Shown one piece after another: positions 5,389-46,920 of a DNA stretch of 46,920 nucleotides. The position numbers and the translations under genes were made by a program. Position 1 is the stretch's first letter. Each line of letters opens with the position of its first letter. The notes below the pieces were generated by a model. The model was not told where the DNA came from and ran no database searches. It saw nothing but the letters and a program-made list of their open reading frames with translations. This DNA is from a virus: the IMG/VR virus record IMGVR_UViG_3300049846_000524, positions 1 through 46,920 of that record; one strand, written 5' to 3'.

Positions 5389-5645
5389 CTAAATTTCAAA
5401 GCGATATTTCTCCCTTCTGGAAAAAGAGAGGAGATTGTTGCACTTTCATTAAAGTTGTTGATATCTTGCTAGACGACGGAATCGCAGTGGACTTGAAAGT
5501 ATCCTGGTGTACCCAATTAAATAATGGCTGGAGAGAATACAGTCAGGGCACTATGAGGATACGAGAAAAAGAATTTCAAGATTGGTCCATATATTTTCCT
5601 AGGGGCGAGATGGTAAATGAAATTCGACAAGATAAAATATCCTAA
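5379..5645 (+). CDS. Hypothetical protein between terS and terL
   Basis: An 88-residue product, overlapping terS at its start and terL by 29 bases at its end. It is predicted beta-rich, with two Cys (CCTF) and many aromatic residues (W, F, Y), and no recognised domain. It is translated from ATG 5379 with AAGAAGA upstream. The tight overlaps on both sides argue that it is a real coupled gene in the packaging operon. A role in packaging is possible only by position. Confidence 0.55.
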   Translation: MGIAKFQSDISPFWKKRGDCCTFIKVVDILLDDGIAVDLKVSWCTQLNNGWREYSQGTMRIREKEFQDWSIYFPRGEMVNEIRQDKIS

Positions 5646-8286
5646 CGTAGCTATGGGGCATCAGTATGCCCTAGATATTGTTTCTGGAAAAATAGTTTCA
5701 AACAAATACATCTTAGGTGCTTGTGAAAGATATCTCCAAGATCTCGAAAATAAAGATGCGGATTTTTATTTTGACCCAGAGGCAGCAGAAAAATATTTAA
5801 GACTTGTTCAAAGATTTGAGCACGTAGAAGGACACTGGCCCACAAAAAATATCGTCTATGCTCCCTGGCAGTGTTGGGTGTTTATGTGTATCATGGGGTT
5901 TTATTCCAAGATCACAGGATTTAGAAGATTTCGTACCGCTCACTTAGAGGTAGCCAGAGGCAATGCTAAGGCGTTGTCACTAAATACAAAAATACCTACA
6001 CCAGACAGAGGTTTGATTGATTTTAAAGATTTAAAAATAGGCGATAAACTTTATAGTTCTTCTGGAGGAATTTGTTCTATTACGAATAGAAATGAAACTC
6101 ATAAATGTAAGTCGTATAGAATACATTTTTCGGATAAAACATTTGTAGAATGTAGTGATAAACATTTATGGGTAACGTCTAATAAAAAAGAAAGAGAGTT
6201 TGGTTTAAAGTCTGTTAAAGATACGGAGTCTATATTTAATACACAAAAAATAGGTAAAGAGTCTAACCATTCTGTAGAAATAGCCAAACCAGTAATCGGC
6301 TCAAGGAGCGATTGCCAGTTAGCTTATGTACTTGGTTATTGGCTTGGGGATGGTCACAGTCAATCTGGAAGATTTTCAGCACATATAGATCAGTACCCAG
6401 AAATAGTTAGTAGATTTAAAGCTAGAAAATTAAAAATAATAGAACACAGTCGAAAAGGAAAAGCGGTATTATTTACTATTCCAGCCCTAACTTATTGGCT
6501 AAAAGAGATAGGAGTCTTAAAAAATAAACATATCCCTGAAAAATATTTCATGGCTGATGAAGACACAAGACGGGAACTTCTCAGAGGACTTATGGATAGT
6601 GATGGGACTTGTTCTAAACAAATTGGAAATTTTACTTTTTGCAACACTAACCCAAACTTAGCTTTTGGGATTAGAAGATTGCTAGGCAGTTTAGGGTATA
6701 AGTCAACAATTAGAAAAACAAACACAACCCATCAAAACGGAAAAAGTAGCGCATACTATGTTACTTTCTCAACCCCCTATTCAAGACCAAGTATATTCGG
6801 TATTCGAGCAAAAGAAGATAATAGATCAAAAAGGAGGCCAAGATATTGTAATAAGAGATACATTACAAAAGTAGAAAAAATAGAAGATCAAATGATGTTT
6901 TGCATAGAAGTAGATTCTCCAGATAAAACTTTTTTAATAACTGATCAATATATACCTACTCATAACTCTACAATGGCATCCCAAATGCTTTTATATTTTT
7001 TATCTTTGGATTCTCCAAACGGAAACTACATTTCAACTGTAGCGACTAAAAGAGATCAAGCCAGAATCGTTTTAGATTCTGCTAGAGCGATGGCAAATAA
7101 AAATAAATCTTTCTTAAGGAAAACTGGCACCAAAGTTTTAGCTCATACAATCGTACATCAAGAATCAAACTCAATAGCTAGAGCTATGTCTGCCGACTAT
7201 GGAAGTCTTGATGGTTTAAAAGATGTCTTAGCTATTTGCGATGAGCTTCATGCAATGGCAAGAAAAGTTTTTGAAGTTATTTACTCCGGCATGAGTAAAC
7301 GTAAAGACTCTCTCCTCATGTGCATTACTACTGCTGGAGATGACGTGGATTCTGTAGGATATTTCCAAACCCTATTCGCTAAGAAAGTGGCCACAGGAGA
7401 AGCCAAAGACGAATCTTTCTTCTCAGCAGTTTATACCTTAGACGATGAAGATGACTGGAGAGATGAGTCTGTTTGGATTAAAGCAAACCCAGGATTAGGA
7501 ATCTCAGTAGACCTAGACTCTCTTCGCGCTAAAGTTGAGAAAGCAATGGTAACCCCTTCTGATGTAGCTAACATCAGAATCAAACACATGAATCAATGGA
7601 TTTCAGAGGCTAATGCTTTTTATGATTTAAAATCCTGGGATAAATGTGAAGACAAAACTTTGAGATTAGAAAACTTCCAAAGAAAATATTGTAGGATTGG
7701 ACTAGATCTTGCGTCTCATATTGACATCACTTCCATAGGGTATGTGTTTAAAGAGAAAGATATTTATTATATCTTCGATAAAAGTTTTCTACCTGAAGAT
7801 ACAGTAAAGCAAAAAAATAACCCTTTCTACGATAGCTGTATTGAAGACGGTAGCCTTATTGTAACTAAGGGAGCCGCAATTAATTATAAGGAAATTCAAG
7901 ATCAAATAAAACAATCAATAAAAGATTTTAGAGTTCAGGAATTATTGTACGACCCCTGGAACGCTACAGAGACCGCTCAAAATTTGAGTGACTTTATTGA
8001 GGCTGTGAAGGTTCCAATGAACACAGGAAACTTATCTGAGCCCATGAAAAAATTAGATACTTTAATTCGAGAAGGAAAAGTCAGACATAATGGCTCTAAA
8101 CTTTTACGTTGGTGTATAGGAAATGTTGTAGCTAAAGAAGATCATAATGGGAATGTTTTCCCTAGAAAGTCCCATGAGAAGATGAAAATTGACCCAGTGA
8201 TTGCAATACTATTGGCTCTAGTTGGATGGCTTGCAAGCGGAGAAGAGACATCAGTCTATGAGACTCGGGGAATAAGAAAATTATGA
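5617..8286 (+). CDS. terL: Terminase large subunit interrupted by an intein
   Basis: The 889-codon frame encodes TerL with a 332-residue intein (residues 119-450). Extein features: P-loop ARGNAK-ST formed after splicing (residues 113-118 joined to 451-452), Walker B LAICDE, and the RNase H-like nuclease with Asp residues in RIGLDLASH, LLYDPWN and KMKIDPVIA. The spliced protein would be 557 residues, normal for an HK97-type TerL. It cuts concatemers and pumps DNA into proheads. The start at 5617 has AGGGGCGAG upstream and overlaps the preceding frame. Because the intein splits the P-loop, packaging needs protein splicing. Confidence 0.95.
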   Translation: MKFDKIKYPNVAMGHQYALDIVSGKIVSNKYILGACERYLQDLENKDADFYFDPEAAEKYLRLVQRFEHVEGHWPTKNIVYAPWQCWVFMCIMGFYSKITGFRRFRTAHLEVARGNAKALSLNTKIPTPDRGLIDFKDLKIGDKLYSSSGGICSITNRNETHKCKSYRIHFSDKTFVECSDKHLWVTSNKKEREFGLKSVKDTESIFNTQKIGKESNHSVEIAKPVIGSRSDCQLAYVLGYWLGDGHSQSGRFSAHIDQYPEIVSRFKARKLKIIEHSRKGKAVLFTIPALTYWLKEIGVLKNKHIPEKYFMADEDTRRELLRGLMDSDGTCSKQIGNFTFCNTNPNLAFGIRRLLGSLGYKSTIRKTNTTHQNGKSSAYYVTFSTPYSRPSIFGIRAKEDNRSKRRPRYCNKRYITKVEKIEDQMMFCIEVDSPDKTFLITDQYIPTHNSTMASQMLLYFLSLDSPNGNYISTVATKRDQARIVLDSARAMANKNKSFLRKTGTKVLAHTIVHQESNSIARAMSADYGSLDGLKDVLAICDELHAMARKVFEVIYSGMSKRKDSLLMCITTAGDDVDSVGYFQTLFAKKVATGEAKDESFFSAVYTLDDEDDWRDESVWIKANPGLGISVDLDSLRAKVEKAMVTPSDVANIRIKHMNQWISEANAFYDLKSWDKCEDKTLRLENFQRKYCRIGLDLASHIDITSIGYVFKEKDIYYIFDKSFLPEDTVKQKNNPFYDSCIEDGSLIVTKGAAINYKEIQDQIKQSIKDFRVQELLYDPWNATETAQNLSDFIEAVKVPMNTGNLSEPMKKLDTLIREGKVRHNGSKLLRWCIGNVVAKEDHNGNVFPRKSHEKMKIDPVIAILLALVGWLASGEETSVYETRGIRKL
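5971..6966 (+). mobile_element. Intein with LAGLIDADG endonuclease in TerL P-loop
   Basis: The insert starts with Ala119 (ALSLNTKIPTPD, block A) and ends TPTHN-type (IPTHN, residues 446-450), followed by Ser451 of the C-extein. Block B carries H183 and W185 (KHLWVT), block F carries C429 (MFCIEV) and block G carries T448: the Trp-Cys-Thr set that defines class 3 inteins, which lack a nucleophile at position 1 and start splicing from the block F Cys. Two LAGLIDADG motifs, LGYWLGDG (239-246) and LLRGLMDSDG (321-330), mark a homing endonuclease domain. The insert position between Lys and Ser of the P-loop is a classic intein site. Confidence 0.9.
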
Positions 8287-14118: not shown

Positions 14119-16014
14119 ATGAAAAAACTAATAATACTAACATTACTTTTAAGTAAATCAGTTATGGGGGCCTATTGGCCTCAAACAGAAATTAAAACTG
14201 GGATTGGTCCTACGGCAGTATCTGAATCAAATCCATTTGCCTGTAGACTATCAGATGGCACTGGCTGGCTTTCAGCCTTAGATGTAAATGCATCTCAATC
14301 CGGTGTTTGGAGTATAAATGATATTTCTGGGACAATCTCTCTTCCTACTGGCGCAGCTACAGCAGCAAATCAATCCACAGCAAATTCTTATTTATCAAGT
14401 ATTGACACTAAAATACCTGCTTTAGTTTCAGGCAGAGTACCTGTGGATGGCTCAGGAGTGACCCAGCCTATAAGTGCAGTATCTTTACCACTCCCTACTG
14501 GCGCAGCTACAGCAGCAAATCAATCCACAGCAAATTCTTATTTATCAAGTATTGACACTAAAATACCTGCTTTAGTTTCAGGCAGAGTACCTGTGGATGG
14601 CTCAGGAGTGACCCAGCCTATAAGTGCAGTATCTTTACCACTCCCTACTGGGGCGGCTACTGAAGCTACTCTAAGCTCCATTAACGGGAAATTAAATTCA
14701 CTAGGACAAAAGACAATGGCAAACTCTATGCCTGTTACAATGGCTAGTGATCAAACTGCTGTGAGAGCTGGTGTTAGTATAACTGATAACTACGCACCAA
14801 ATTCCCCGTATACTGAAACCTCTTTAGGCACCCTAAAAGCAGACCCAGATGGGCAACTACTTGTTAGAGGGAGTGTTTTAACTGATGAGGGGACATTTAG
14901 AGATGATTTTATAGGTAGTGTTCTTGATTCATCTATATGGACATCAGCGGTTGTTACAACGGGAACCATAAATGTTGCTAACTCAATAGCTACACTTGCT
15001 ACTGGGAATAGTGCTTCAGGAGCCGCATACATTTTCAGTGATGGGGATTATGGTCCAATATCTCTAAGAACTCAATTATCTATTTCTCAAAGACTAAATA
15101 ACCAAACAACCGAAGTCGGTTTTAGGGATACAGTAGTAACTCCCACTAAGTTTGCTTTTTTTAGATTTACTGGGACATCTGTTAATCAAGTTACTTGTGT
15201 AACTGGCTCTTCATCAGCCGCAGCAGACACTCAAACTACTACTGTAACTTTAAATGACTTTTCTTCTACTAGTTCAAATGATTATTACATTGAAGTTCAG
15301 CCTGACCAAGTCTCATTTATTATAAACAACAAAGTAGTAGCAACACATAGACTTCATGTACCAGGACCCTATGATGTATTAAATATCCACAGTGGTATTA
15401 CTACAAACTCAGGGCCTGGCAGTAACACAAGTCTAGCAATTGATTATATATATTTTATAAATCAAAACTCTATCCAAGTTAATAACTCTTTTGCAGGTGA
15501 CCCCCTACCTATCTATAGGGTAAATACAAACCCAGCTACATATTCGGCTACAAGTGAATTTGTAATGGCTAACACCCCTACTGATGTATTTACAATTACT
15601 GGTAGCGCATCAAAAACTGTTACAATTAGAAAAATAATTATTACAGGAACTCAAACTACAGCTACAAATAGATCTGTTTTTATTTTAAAAAGGTCTACAG
15701 CTAACACTGGCGGCACGTCTACCACACTTACAGCGGTCCCACATGATAATCAAAATGTAGCTGCTACAGCAGTGGTTAGATCGTATACCGCAAACCCTAC
15801 ACTGGGTACATTAGTGGGTAATATGTACTCTGAAAAATTATTCATACCCACTACTACTACAATTGGAAACAAATCAACAATAGAGATTGTAAATAGTGAT
15901 GATATTCAAGATTTCACATTACGGGGTATAAATGAAGTTTTATCAGTAAATTTTAACTCCGTTACTTCTGCTGGTAATTCAATGAATATGACAATAGTTT
16001 GGAGTGAAAAATGA
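14119..16014 (+). CDS. Signal-peptide-bearing repeat and lectin-like structural protein
   Basis: The 631-residue product starts at ATG 14119 with AGGAG upstream (an in-frame ATG at 14089 lies inside the previous gene). The first 19 residues (MKKLIILTLLLSKSVMG) look like a Sec signal peptide. Two identical 50-residue repeats (about 76-175) begin PTGAATAANQSTANSYLSS, followed by a third partial copy. A middle region beginning RDDFIGSVLDSSIW resembles a concanavalin-type lectin or glucanase fold, and the C-terminal part is Ser/Thr-rich beta. It is probably an adhesin or fibre. A signal peptide on a phage structural protein is odd and may instead be an N-terminal anchor. Confidence 0.65.
   Translation: MKKLIILTLLLSKSVMGAYWPQTEIKTGIGPTAVSESNPFACRLSDGTGWLSALDVNASQSGVWSINDISGTISLPTGAATAANQSTANSYLSSIDTKIPALVSGRVPVDGSGVTQPISAVSLPLPTGAATAANQSTANSYLSSIDTKIPALVSGRVPVDGSGVTQPISAVSLPLPTGAATEATLSSINGKLNSLGQKTMANSMPVTMASDQTAVRAGVSITDNYAPNSPYTETSLGTLKADPDGQLLVRGSVLTDEGTFRDDFIGSVLDSSIWTSAVVTTGTINVANSIATLATGNSASGAAYIFSDGDYGPISLRTQLSISQRLNNQTTEVGFRDTVVTPTKFAFFRFTGTSVNQVTCVTGSSSAAADTQTTTVTLNDFSSTSSNDYYIEVQPDQVSFIINNKVVATHRLHVPGPYDVLNIHSGITTNSGPGSNTSLAIDYIYFINQNSIQVNNSFAGDPLPIYRVNTNPATYSATSEFVMANTPTDVFTITGSASKTVTIRKIIITGTQTTATNRSVFILKRSTANTGGTSTTLTAVPHDNQNVAATAVVRSYTANPTLGTLVGNMYSEKLFIPTTTTIGNKSTIEIVNSDDIQDFTLRGINEVLSVNFNSVTSAGNSMNMTIVWSEK
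14344..14651 (+). repeat. 150-bp exact tandem duplication
   Basis: Positions 14344-14501 are identical to 14494-14651 at an offset of 150 bp, encoding two identical 50-residue units. The third unit starts (PTGAATEAT) but diverges after 12 bp. No silent differences have accumulated between the copies, which points to a recent duplication or ongoing gene conversion. Confidence 0.95.
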
Positions 16015-45795: not shown

Positions 45796-46103
45796 ATTTA
45801 TATAAACTAGCGCCCGATGAAAAATTAATACTAAAATTAATTAATGAGAATGGAGATGAATTCTTAGCAGGACACAATAAAGGATATCTAAGTTTAATAC
45901 TTTTAGCTGATAAGAAAATGGGCTCAGTATTAGAAAATGTATTATTGTGGGATAGTATTGAAAGCCTAGAAGAGTGGGTAAACATGATAAAAAATACTTG
46001 CCCTGATGTTTATAAAGATCTTATTCAATTGGATATGAGAATTACTAAAGTTAAAGTAAAGATAGCCTCAGAGACTAAAAACCATTTAGGAATTACACAT
46101 TAA
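45792..46103 (+). CDS. Hypothetical acidic helical protein
   Basis: A 103-residue product starting at ATG 45792 (ATGA overlap; an ATG at 45783 adds three residues). It is helical and contains KLAPDEKLILKLINENGDEF, ILLADKKMGS and IESLEEWVNMIKNTCPDVYKD, with no family I recognise. It is the last + strand gene before the leftward segment; transcription would run antisense into the tRNA-like gene. Confidence 0.5.
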   Translation: MNLYKLAPDEKLILKLINENGDEFLAGHNKGYLSLILLADKKMGSVLENVLLWDSIESLEEWVNMIKNTCPDVYKDLIQLDMRITKVKVKIASETKNHLGITH

Positions 46104-46104
46104 T

Positions 46105-46186
46105 TGGCGGCCCTGATAGGATTCAAACCTATGTCCTCCCATGTGATCGTCATCTAATGGGCGCTCTATCACTGAGCTACAGAGCC
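46105..46186 (-). tRNA. tRNA-like gene with 14-nt anticodon loop
   Basis: On the minus strand the 82 bases fold as a tRNA: acceptor GGCTCTG/CAGGGCC (7 bp, one G-U), U8-A9, D arm GCTC-AGTGATA-GAGC, G26, anticodon stem CCCAT/ATGGG, variable loop AGGAC, T arm ATAGG-TTTGAAT-CCTAT, discriminator G and encoded CCA. Positions 15 (G) and 48 (C), and A19 with U56, keep the tertiary pairs. The anticodon loop is 14 nt (TAGATGACGATCAC) instead of 7 and contains a possible GAT-GACG-ATC mini-hairpin, so no anticodon or U33 can be placed. Amino acid identity is therefore unassigned. Confidence 0.8.
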
Positions 46187-46288
46187 AACTAGATATTATA
46201 AGGTAGGGCATATCATTTCCAGGCGTGAATAAATTTTTAAGGGGCGGCAATCTATGGCCGTTTACAGAATGAATGCGCTGAGAAATTT
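46187..46288. other. Short spacer between tRNA-like gene and leftward CDS
   Basis: No gene is seen. A short GGC/GCC stem occurs near 46246-46258 and a 7-bp GAGAAAT/ATTTCTC stem at 46280-46302 overlapping the end of the leftward gene. Neither is followed by a clear U-tract on the minus strand, so the leftward transcript could continue into the tRNA-like gene. Confidence 0.4.
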
Positions 46289-46594
46289 TTATTTTATTTC
46301 TCGATATTGTTTATAGAGTTCACTGATCTCAAGTGACTTACTTACGATAGCAATCACAGCGCCTTTTATATATTTTTCCTGATTAGTTTTATATCTATCT
46401 ACCTCTTTTTTTAGGGTAGCTTCTAATACAAAATCTTCGATTAGGTCCAAATCTTTATCCACAAATTCATTAAAATTTTTCTGAGATTTTTTAGAGAAAT
46501 CTATTAGATCTAATAACTTTTTTATCTCTTTTTTATTGCGCTCAATCTTAGCCATGATTGATCTTTTTTTAAGATTGATTGTTTTATTTATCAT
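46289..46594 (-). CDS. Small coiled-coil protein, leftward
   Basis: The 101-residue minus-strand product is Lys/Glu-rich and almost entirely helical (KIERNKKEIKKLLDLIDF...KKEVDRYKTNQEKY...KSLEISELYKQY), likely a coiled coil. Start at ATG 46594 has GAGATCTCAA upstream; an internal ATG at 46555 is the alternative with no better ribosome site. It lies downstream (leftward) of the triple operator array and upstream of the tRNA-like gene, so all three may form one repressed transcript. Function unknown. Confidence 0.55.
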   Translation of the reverse strand: MINKTINLKKRSIMAKIERNKKEIKKLLDLIDFSKKSQKNFNEFVDKDLDLIEDFVLEATLKKEVDRYKTNQEKYIKGAVIAIVSKSLEISELYKQYREIK

Positions 46595-46692: not shown

Positions 46693-46747
46693 TGTCTAAT
46701 TTTTAGACAGTTGTCTAAACTTTGGACAGTTGTCTAAAAGTTAGACA
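46693..46747. promoter_or_regulatory. Array of three 17-bp palindromic operators
   Basis: Three 17-bp sites with consensus TGTCTAA-N3-TTAGACA lie at 46693-46709, 46712-46728 and 46731-46747, each separated by the dinucleotide GT, for a 19-bp period. Sites 1 and 3 are perfect palindromes in their arms; site 2 has one change (TTGGACA). This is the geometry of lambda-type repressor operators. They lie upstream of the leftward coiled-coil gene. The binding protein may be the XRE regulator or a protein beyond the window. Confidence 0.85.
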
Positions 46748-46753
46748 GATCGG

Positions 46754-46793: not shown

Positions 46794-46920
46794 CCTTGAG
46801 ACTCCAAGCCTTGAGACTCCAAGCCTTGAGACTCCAAGCCTTGAGACTCCAAGCCTTGAGACTCCAAGCCTTGAGACTCCAAGCCTTGAGACTCCAAGCC
46901 TTGAGACTCCAAGCCTTGAG
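46794..46920. repeat. 15-bp tandem repeat running off the window end
   Basis: A unit of CCTTGAGACTCCAAG repeats from 46794 to the last base, about 8.5 exact copies with no visible variation. Each unit contains CTTG-N6-CAAG and the junction CAAGCCTTG, near-palindromic. On the minus strand one frame reads GLESQ repeats, but five of six frames are open through such a repeat, so coding cannot be inferred. Contig ends often fall in such repeats because assembly fails there. Confidence 0.95.

What the first reader, a model, noticed from the sequence alone, without database searches (positions are those of the whole stretch)
46105..46186. tRNA-like gene with a canonical body but no usable anticodon loop
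Acceptor, D and T arms, variable loop, G26, G15-C48 and a genome-encoded CCA all fit a functional tRNA. Both partners of the 19-56 tertiary contact are changed together (G19 to A and C56 to U), which keeps a pair and argues against simple decay. Yet the anticodon stem CCCAT/ATGGG encloses 14 nt (TAGATGACGATCAC) with no U33 and a possible GAT-GACG-ATC hairpin, so it cannot decode by the usual rules. Options (inference): a decoy for host anticodon nucleases, a processed or spliced precursor, or a non-translational RNA. It is on the leftward transcript next to an operator array.
Basis: partly seen in the sequence, partly recalled or inferred. Interest (0 to 1): 0.78.

Follow-up and report, generated by a model that had tools for sequence, protein, structure and literature searches.

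The report
Phage tRNA-like gene without an anticodon
This virus of bacteria carries a gene for an RNA shaped like a transfer RNA whose decoding loop has been replaced by a 14-letter loop that cannot read codons, and the same odd design turns up in many unrelated bacterial viruses, so it is probably a non-decoding RNA rather than a sequencing mistake.

Summary
The minus strand at 46186-46105 encodes an intact class-I tRNA body (Rfam tRNA, 53.6 bits) with encoded CCA. Its anticodon stem CCCAT/ATGGG closes a 14-nt loop with no U33, and ARAGORN calls no tRNA. No single 7-nt deletion restores a loop with U33, so one recent insertion or a sequencing error does not explain it. The A19-U56 argument carries little weight: nine other viral contigs have exactly that D/T-loop pair with ordinary 7-nt loops. 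The gene is not unique in kind. More than 120 other viral contigs hold tRNA bodies with oversized anticodon regions (4 of 129 in a matched sample, against 0 in 496 bacterial genomes). In some families the odd arm is conserved while acceptor and T stems change by compensation. Cultured Microbacterium phages keep one at a fixed site, annotated inconsistently as Ser, Thr, Asn, Phe, Pro, Ala or 'Undet'. I read the window's gene as a non-decoding, tRNA-derived phage RNA that acts through its body, with a TATAAT box 8 nt upstream. Decay of an ordinary phage tRNA remains a serious rival, because the window's relatives lack the gene and selection on it could not be measured. Its target is unknown.

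The parts
46108..46186 (-). tRNA-like body: acceptor 46186-46180/46115-46109, D arm 46177-46163, G26 46162, variable AGGAC 46137-46133, T arm 46132-46116, discriminator G 46108
   Evidence: Rfam RF00005 53.6 bits, E 7.3e-9; sequence; fold
46138..46161 (-). non-canonical anticodon arm: stem CCCAT/ATGGG closing the 14-nt loop TAGATGACGATCAC (46156-46143), no U33, possible inner hairpin GAT-GACG-ATC
   Evidence: sequence; MFE fold; ARAGORN finds no tRNA
46105..46107 (-). encoded 3' CCA, one base from the stop codon (46101-46103) of the convergent 106-aa ORF
   Evidence: sequence
46195..46200 (-). TATAAT, perfect -10 hexamer 8 nt upstream of G1; candidate own promoter with a start at or within 1-2 nt of the RNA 5' end (no clear -35)
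   Evidence: sequence; TATAAT occurs at 4.3e-4 per position in the window; the consensus scan did not list it because the -35 is poor
46289..46594 (-). orphan 101-aa ORF, next gene upstream on the same strand, between operator array and tRNA-like gene
   Evidence: no relatives; no confident family
46693..46749 (.). three near-palindromic 19-bp repeats TGTCTAA..TTAGACA (operator-like array)

Best explanation
A phage tRNA gene has been turned into a gene for a stable, non-decoding, tRNA-shaped RNA. The body that host tRNA enzymes recognise (acceptor stem, T arm, elbow, CCA) is kept, while the anticodon arm is released from its decoding constraints. It is probably transcribed from its own -10 box right at the 5' end, matured and stabilised like a tRNA, and acts through its body as a mimic, sponge or scaffold for a tRNA-binding host factor, not by translation. 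Shown: intact body, unusable loop, recurrence of this design in many unrelated phages, and structural covariation in several of those families. Inferred: transcription, maturation, and action through the body. Not known: the partner.
For: Body intact with a strong Rfam match. No single 7-nt deletion from CCCATTAGATGACGATCACATGGG leaves a 7-nt loop with U at position 33, so at least two changes separate it from a decoding tRNA. It is 4 of 129 in a matched viral sample, against 0 in 496 bacterial genomes where about 720 normal matches are expected (29 in 20 genomes). Selection in relatives of the kind: L061 and L127 share the odd arm almost letter for letter but have wholly different, fully paired acceptor stems; L046/L070/L072 keep the arm with compensatory acceptor and T-stem changes. 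Microbacterium cluster EA phages keep one at a fixed site upstream of DNA polymerase, with compensatory changes in the acceptor and T stems and a middle of 31-78 nt in the non-ambiguous cases. TATAAT sits 8 nt upstream of the window's gene.
Against: No relative of the window carries the gene, so selection on this copy cannot be measured. Its arm matches no family of the class, and it ends in CCA whereas only 11 of 94 expanded members do. The class has no common neighbour, so it may be a mixture with no single function. No terminator was found downstream and the -35 is weak. No expression data.
Confidence: 0.48

Rival explanations
1. A decaying tRNA: an ordinary phage tRNA lost its function through changes in the anticodon loop and has not yet lost its body.
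For: The gene is absent from relatives; a single copy with no measurable selection; the loop can be read as TA-GATGAC-GATCAC, a near-tandem duplication (5/6) that slippage could make; the phage has no other tRNA.
Against: All 21 stem pairs plus 19-56, G15-C48 and CCA are intact; loss of U33 is needed on top of any 7-nt insertion; a TATAAT sits at the right place; many other phage lineages show the same pattern with compensation in the stems.
Confidence: 0.3
2. An RNA-processing or boundary module: the tRNA shape is there for RNase P/RNase Z to cut a longer transcript, or to block read-through between the converging transcription units, and the mature RNA itself has no job.
For: In Microbacterium EA phages the element sits between a hairpin and the DNA polymerase gene with only the acceptor/T half conserved, the part those enzymes recognise (established knowledge). 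In the window it lies exactly between convergent genes, 1 nt from the stop codon of the rightward ORF.
Against: The candidate -10 of the window places the start at the tRNA 5' end, which leaves no leader to cut; nothing is encoded downstream on the minus strand until the convergent operon.
Confidence: 0.13
3. A decoy or cleavage-resistant substrate for host anticodon nucleases (PrrC, RloC, VapC, colicin-like).
For: Phage tRNAs are known to counter such enzymes (PMC10264068, PMC11555353).
Against: Those phage tRNAs keep a working anticodon; here there is none, so it can neither replace a cut tRNA nor present the recognised loop. Acceptor and discriminator match no isotype clearly.
Confidence: 0.05
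4. An attachment-site remnant: a host tRNA gene picked up or rebuilt by integration.
For: tRNA genes are common att sites, and phage tRNAs can be needed for lysogeny (PMC10865867).
Against: No integrase among the roughly 30 window proteins tested, most of them the larger or undescribed ones; the gene holds both tRNA halves; in the described system the phage tRNA is functional.
Confidence: 0.04

Closest known systems
Phage genes annotated 'tRNA-Undet (nnn)' / tRNA-OTHER, e.g. Tenacibaculum phage pT24 (two copies) and Microbacterium phage Librie (PMC9583789)
   Same: tRNA body, often solitary, no assignable anticodon, arm of abnormal length
   Different: different arms and contexts; most lack encoded CCA; no function has been reported in the papers found here
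Ordinary phage tRNAs with altered anticodon loops (PMC10264068)
   Same: phage-encoded tRNA body with changes confined to the anticodon loop
   Different: those keep an anticodon and still decode; here there is no usable anticodon
P1/P7 c4 antisense RNA and P4 CI RNA (RNase P-processed phage immunity RNAs; from my own knowledge)
   Same: small structured phage RNA cut by a tRNA enzyme, near repressor/operator regions
   Different: not a tRNA body; no Rfam C4 match here and no complementarity of the arm to nearby mRNA beyond chance
tRNAOther of Bacillus cereus (PMC3399842)
   Same: a predicted pseudo-tRNA on a mobile element that does not serve translation yet affects the cell
   Different: chromosomal genomic island, not a phage genome; sequence not compared here

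Membership tests
tRNA (Rfam RF00005) | cloverleaf with conserved D and T loops above the curated cut-off | tested here: met
   53.6 bits against a gathering score of 29
Decoding tRNA | 7-nt anticodon loop with U33 | tested here: not met
   14-nt loop, no U33 in any 7-nt reading; ARAGORN finds none
Decoding tRNA | aminoacylation | not testable with these tools
   no acceptor G3-U70; body not clearly nearest to any isotype
Non-decoding phage tRNA-like genes ('tRNA-Undet') | intact acceptor and T stems with an anticodon region of abnormal length | tested here: met
Non-decoding phage tRNA-like genes ('tRNA-Undet') | structure kept by compensatory change across relatives | tested here: inconclusive
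   shown for other families; the window's gene has no homologue
Intron-containing tRNA | group I or archaeal-type intron in the anticodon loop | tested here: not met
   only 7 extra nt; no intron family in Rfam
C4 antisense RNA | Rfam C4 model match and complementarity to a nearby leader | tested here: not met
tRNA-dependent lysogeny | tyrosine integrase and a functional tRNA replacing a disrupted host tRNA | tested here: not met
   no integrase found among tested proteins, tRNA cannot decode
Anticodon-nuclease countermeasure tRNA | decoding tRNA resistant to cleavage | tested here: not met
   no anticodon

The most novel reading that the evidence does not exclude
Many bacterial viruses independently turn a tRNA into a non-decoding RNA that keeps only the parts host tRNA enzymes grip, to bind or occupy a tRNA-recognising host factor (defence nuclease, RNase P, CCA enzyme or another); the window's gene is one instance, and the scattered 'tRNA-Undet' annotations are an overlooked functional class.
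Probability: 0.25. Interest if true: 0.8.

Novelty: new variant of a known kind. Interest (0 to 1): 0.56.

Why it matters
Phage tRNAs are usually explained by codon supply or by repair of nuclease damage. Phage RNAs that keep a tRNA body under selection while discarding the anticodon cannot be explained that way and would point to a separate, body-based role. Annotation pipelines give such genes meaningless isotypes (Ser, Thr, Asn, Phe, Pro, Ala, Undet at one site in Microbacterium phages), so the class has been easy to overlook, and cultured phages with it are available for tests.

Tried and rejected
Cis antisense: the arm has no notable complementarity in the window, and across 111 class members the longest match is near the shuffled value, apart from a duplicated pair in one phage. 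Common neighbour or operon: none in PHROGs or Pfam for 137 neighbours, apart from two groups in immunity or early regions of temperate phages. Class-wide promoter: no enrichment of TATAAT-like boxes just upstream compared with normal phage tRNAs. Relatives by neighbouring proteins: the 106-aa and 101-aa ORFs have none. DNA similarity of the right end in phages: none. Exact tRNA-like sequence elsewhere in viral contigs: none. A19/U56 plus a wide gap: only normal tRNAs found. Host by MCP homologues in genomes: only 38% matches in unrelated phyla, host unresolved. Isotype of the body: nearest tRNAs are spread over Thr, Asn, Arg.

Full report
Observation. The minus strand at 46186-46105 reads GGCTCTG TA GCTC AGTGATA GAGC G CCCAT TAGATGACGATCAC ATGGG AGGAC ATAGG TTTGAAT CCTAT CAGGGCC G CCA. 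All four stems pair fully, and the conserved body positions and an encoded CCA are present. Rfam's tRNA model matches it with 53.6 bits (E 7.3e-9 in the window). ARAGORN finds no tRNA in the window, because no anticodon loop can be placed. The predicted fold is a cloverleaf whose anticodon loop of 14 nt holds a weak three-pair hairpin. The window is a 46,920-base IMG/VR virus record with no other tRNA; the phage is a siphovirus with terminase, capsid, tape-measure and lambda J-like tail genes.

Is the loop a simple accident? Removing any 7 contiguous bases from CCCATTAGATGACGATCACATGGG never gives a 17-base arm with U at loop position 33: the seventh base left is always A or G (direct from the sequence). 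One insertion into a working tRNA, or a sequencing error of that size, is therefore not enough. The loop can be read as TA-GATGAC-GATCAC, a near-tandem six-base repeat (5/6), so slippage plus substitution is a possible origin.

The A19-U56 argument. A scan of viral contigs for AGCTCAGTGATAGAGC followed by GGTTTGAATCC finds nine tRNA genes with exactly this pair and normal spacing, called by ARAGORN as Gln, Asn, Thr and Val tRNAs. The pair is ordinary variation in phage tRNAs and says little about decay.

Surroundings. Upstream on the same strand are TATAAT at 46200-46195, 8 nt before G1, then a 101-aa orphan ORF (46594-46289), then three near-palindromic 19-bp repeats at 46693-46749, then a perfect 15-bp array that runs into the contig end. 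TATAAT occurs at 4.3e-4 per position in the window, so a match at one of the few suitable spacings has a chance of roughly 0.2%; the -35 is poor and the consensus scan does not list the site. The 3' CCA ends one base from the stop codon of the rightward 106-aa ORF. No integrase was found among the proteins tested.

Relatives. The closest phage (56 kb; terminase 71% identical outside an intein) is collinear over most of its length but has no tRNA match and no counterpart of the right end. Nine further records with MCP homologues also have none, though several are short fragments. Selection on the window's own copy cannot be measured.

The same design elsewhere. Most have 7/7 acceptor pairs and 5/5 T-stem pairs, which the pattern did not demand, with anticodon regions that do not form a normal 7-nt loop, often hairpins with stable tetraloops; a minority are tRNAs with a normal loop and a long variable region. 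In a scan that admits normal and wide gaps alike, 4 of 129 viral matches are wide. In 496 bacterial genomes there are no wide matches, where about 720 normal ones are expected from 29 in 20 genomes. Wide members end in CCA in 11 of 94 cases, usually keeping C74 and A76 but changing C75, against 73 of 124 for normal ones. They are often the only tRNA-like gene in the stretch held: 48 of 80 loci have at most one ARAGORN call.

Evidence that such genes are functional RNAs. L061 and L127 share the odd arm almost letter for letter, yet their acceptor stems are entirely different and both fully paired. L046, L070 and L072 share another arm and differ by compensatory changes in the acceptor and T stems. 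In Microbacterium cluster EA phages, the site upstream of DNA polymerase I holds a solitary tRNA-like element in all 19 genomes looked at. It is annotated as Ser, Thr, Asn, Phe, Pro, Ala, Undet or not at all. Acceptor and T stems vary by paired changes (acceptor position 4: A-U, C-G, G-U; position 5: C-G, U-A, U-G; position 7: A-U, C-G, G-C, G-U; T pairs 49-51 likewise), while the region between varies widely in length and sequence (the acceptor that the script chose for Juicer and Mercedes is ambiguous). Papers that mention these genes do so only in passing.

Interpretation. The window's gene fits this loosely defined kind: body kept, decoding arm released. My best reading is a non-decoding tRNA-derived RNA that works through its body, from its own promoter. 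What is shown is the anatomy and the recurrence of the design with covariation in other families; expression, maturation and partner are inference. The main rival is decay of a phage tRNA, which I cannot exclude for this copy. Antisense action in cis, a C4-type RNA, splicing and an attachment-site origin found no support. The class is defined by a search pattern, shares no common neighbour, and may contain several unrelated functions.

Noticed in passing
5617-8286: Large terminase carries an insertion of about 331 aa (residues 120-450) with a LAGLIDADG domain at the Walker A motif; the close relative L001 is contiguous at that point, and Vibrio and Stenotrophomonas phage terminases have an insertion at the same place: an intein.
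   Followed up: partly
46794-46920: Perfect 15-bp array CCTTGAGACTCCAAG, 8.5 copies, running into the contig end; probably where the assembly broke. Absent from relative G001.
   Followed up: partly
14344-14660: 150-bp tandem repeat, 2.1 copies, 98% identical, inside a 641-aa protein without a family match.
   Followed up: no
L046, L061, L070, L072, L132, L140: Non-decoding tRNA-like genes downstream of a divergent HTH (CI-like) repressor in temperate-phage early regions, several with a Rha-like gene nearby.
   Followed up: partly
L271-L289: Microbacterium cluster EA phages: tRNA-like element between a hairpin and the DNA polymerase I gene in all 19 genomes looked at, with conserved acceptor/T half and free middle; annotated isotypes are inconsistent.
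   Followed up: partly
L096, L129, L135: Gly-like phage tRNAs with a normal 7-nt loop but a conserved long variable region GAGGCGAATAGTTTAC, outside the known class-II isotypes.
   Followed up: no
L063, L125: tRNA-like genes whose acceptor stem runs straight into a T run (CATTCTTTTTT), as if the acceptor helix doubled as a terminator.
   Followed up: no
L021-L140: Wide-arm tRNA-like genes often keep C74 and A76 but change C75 (ACAA, GCAA, ACTA, ACGA) where normal phage tRNAs mostly encode CCA.
   Followed up: partly
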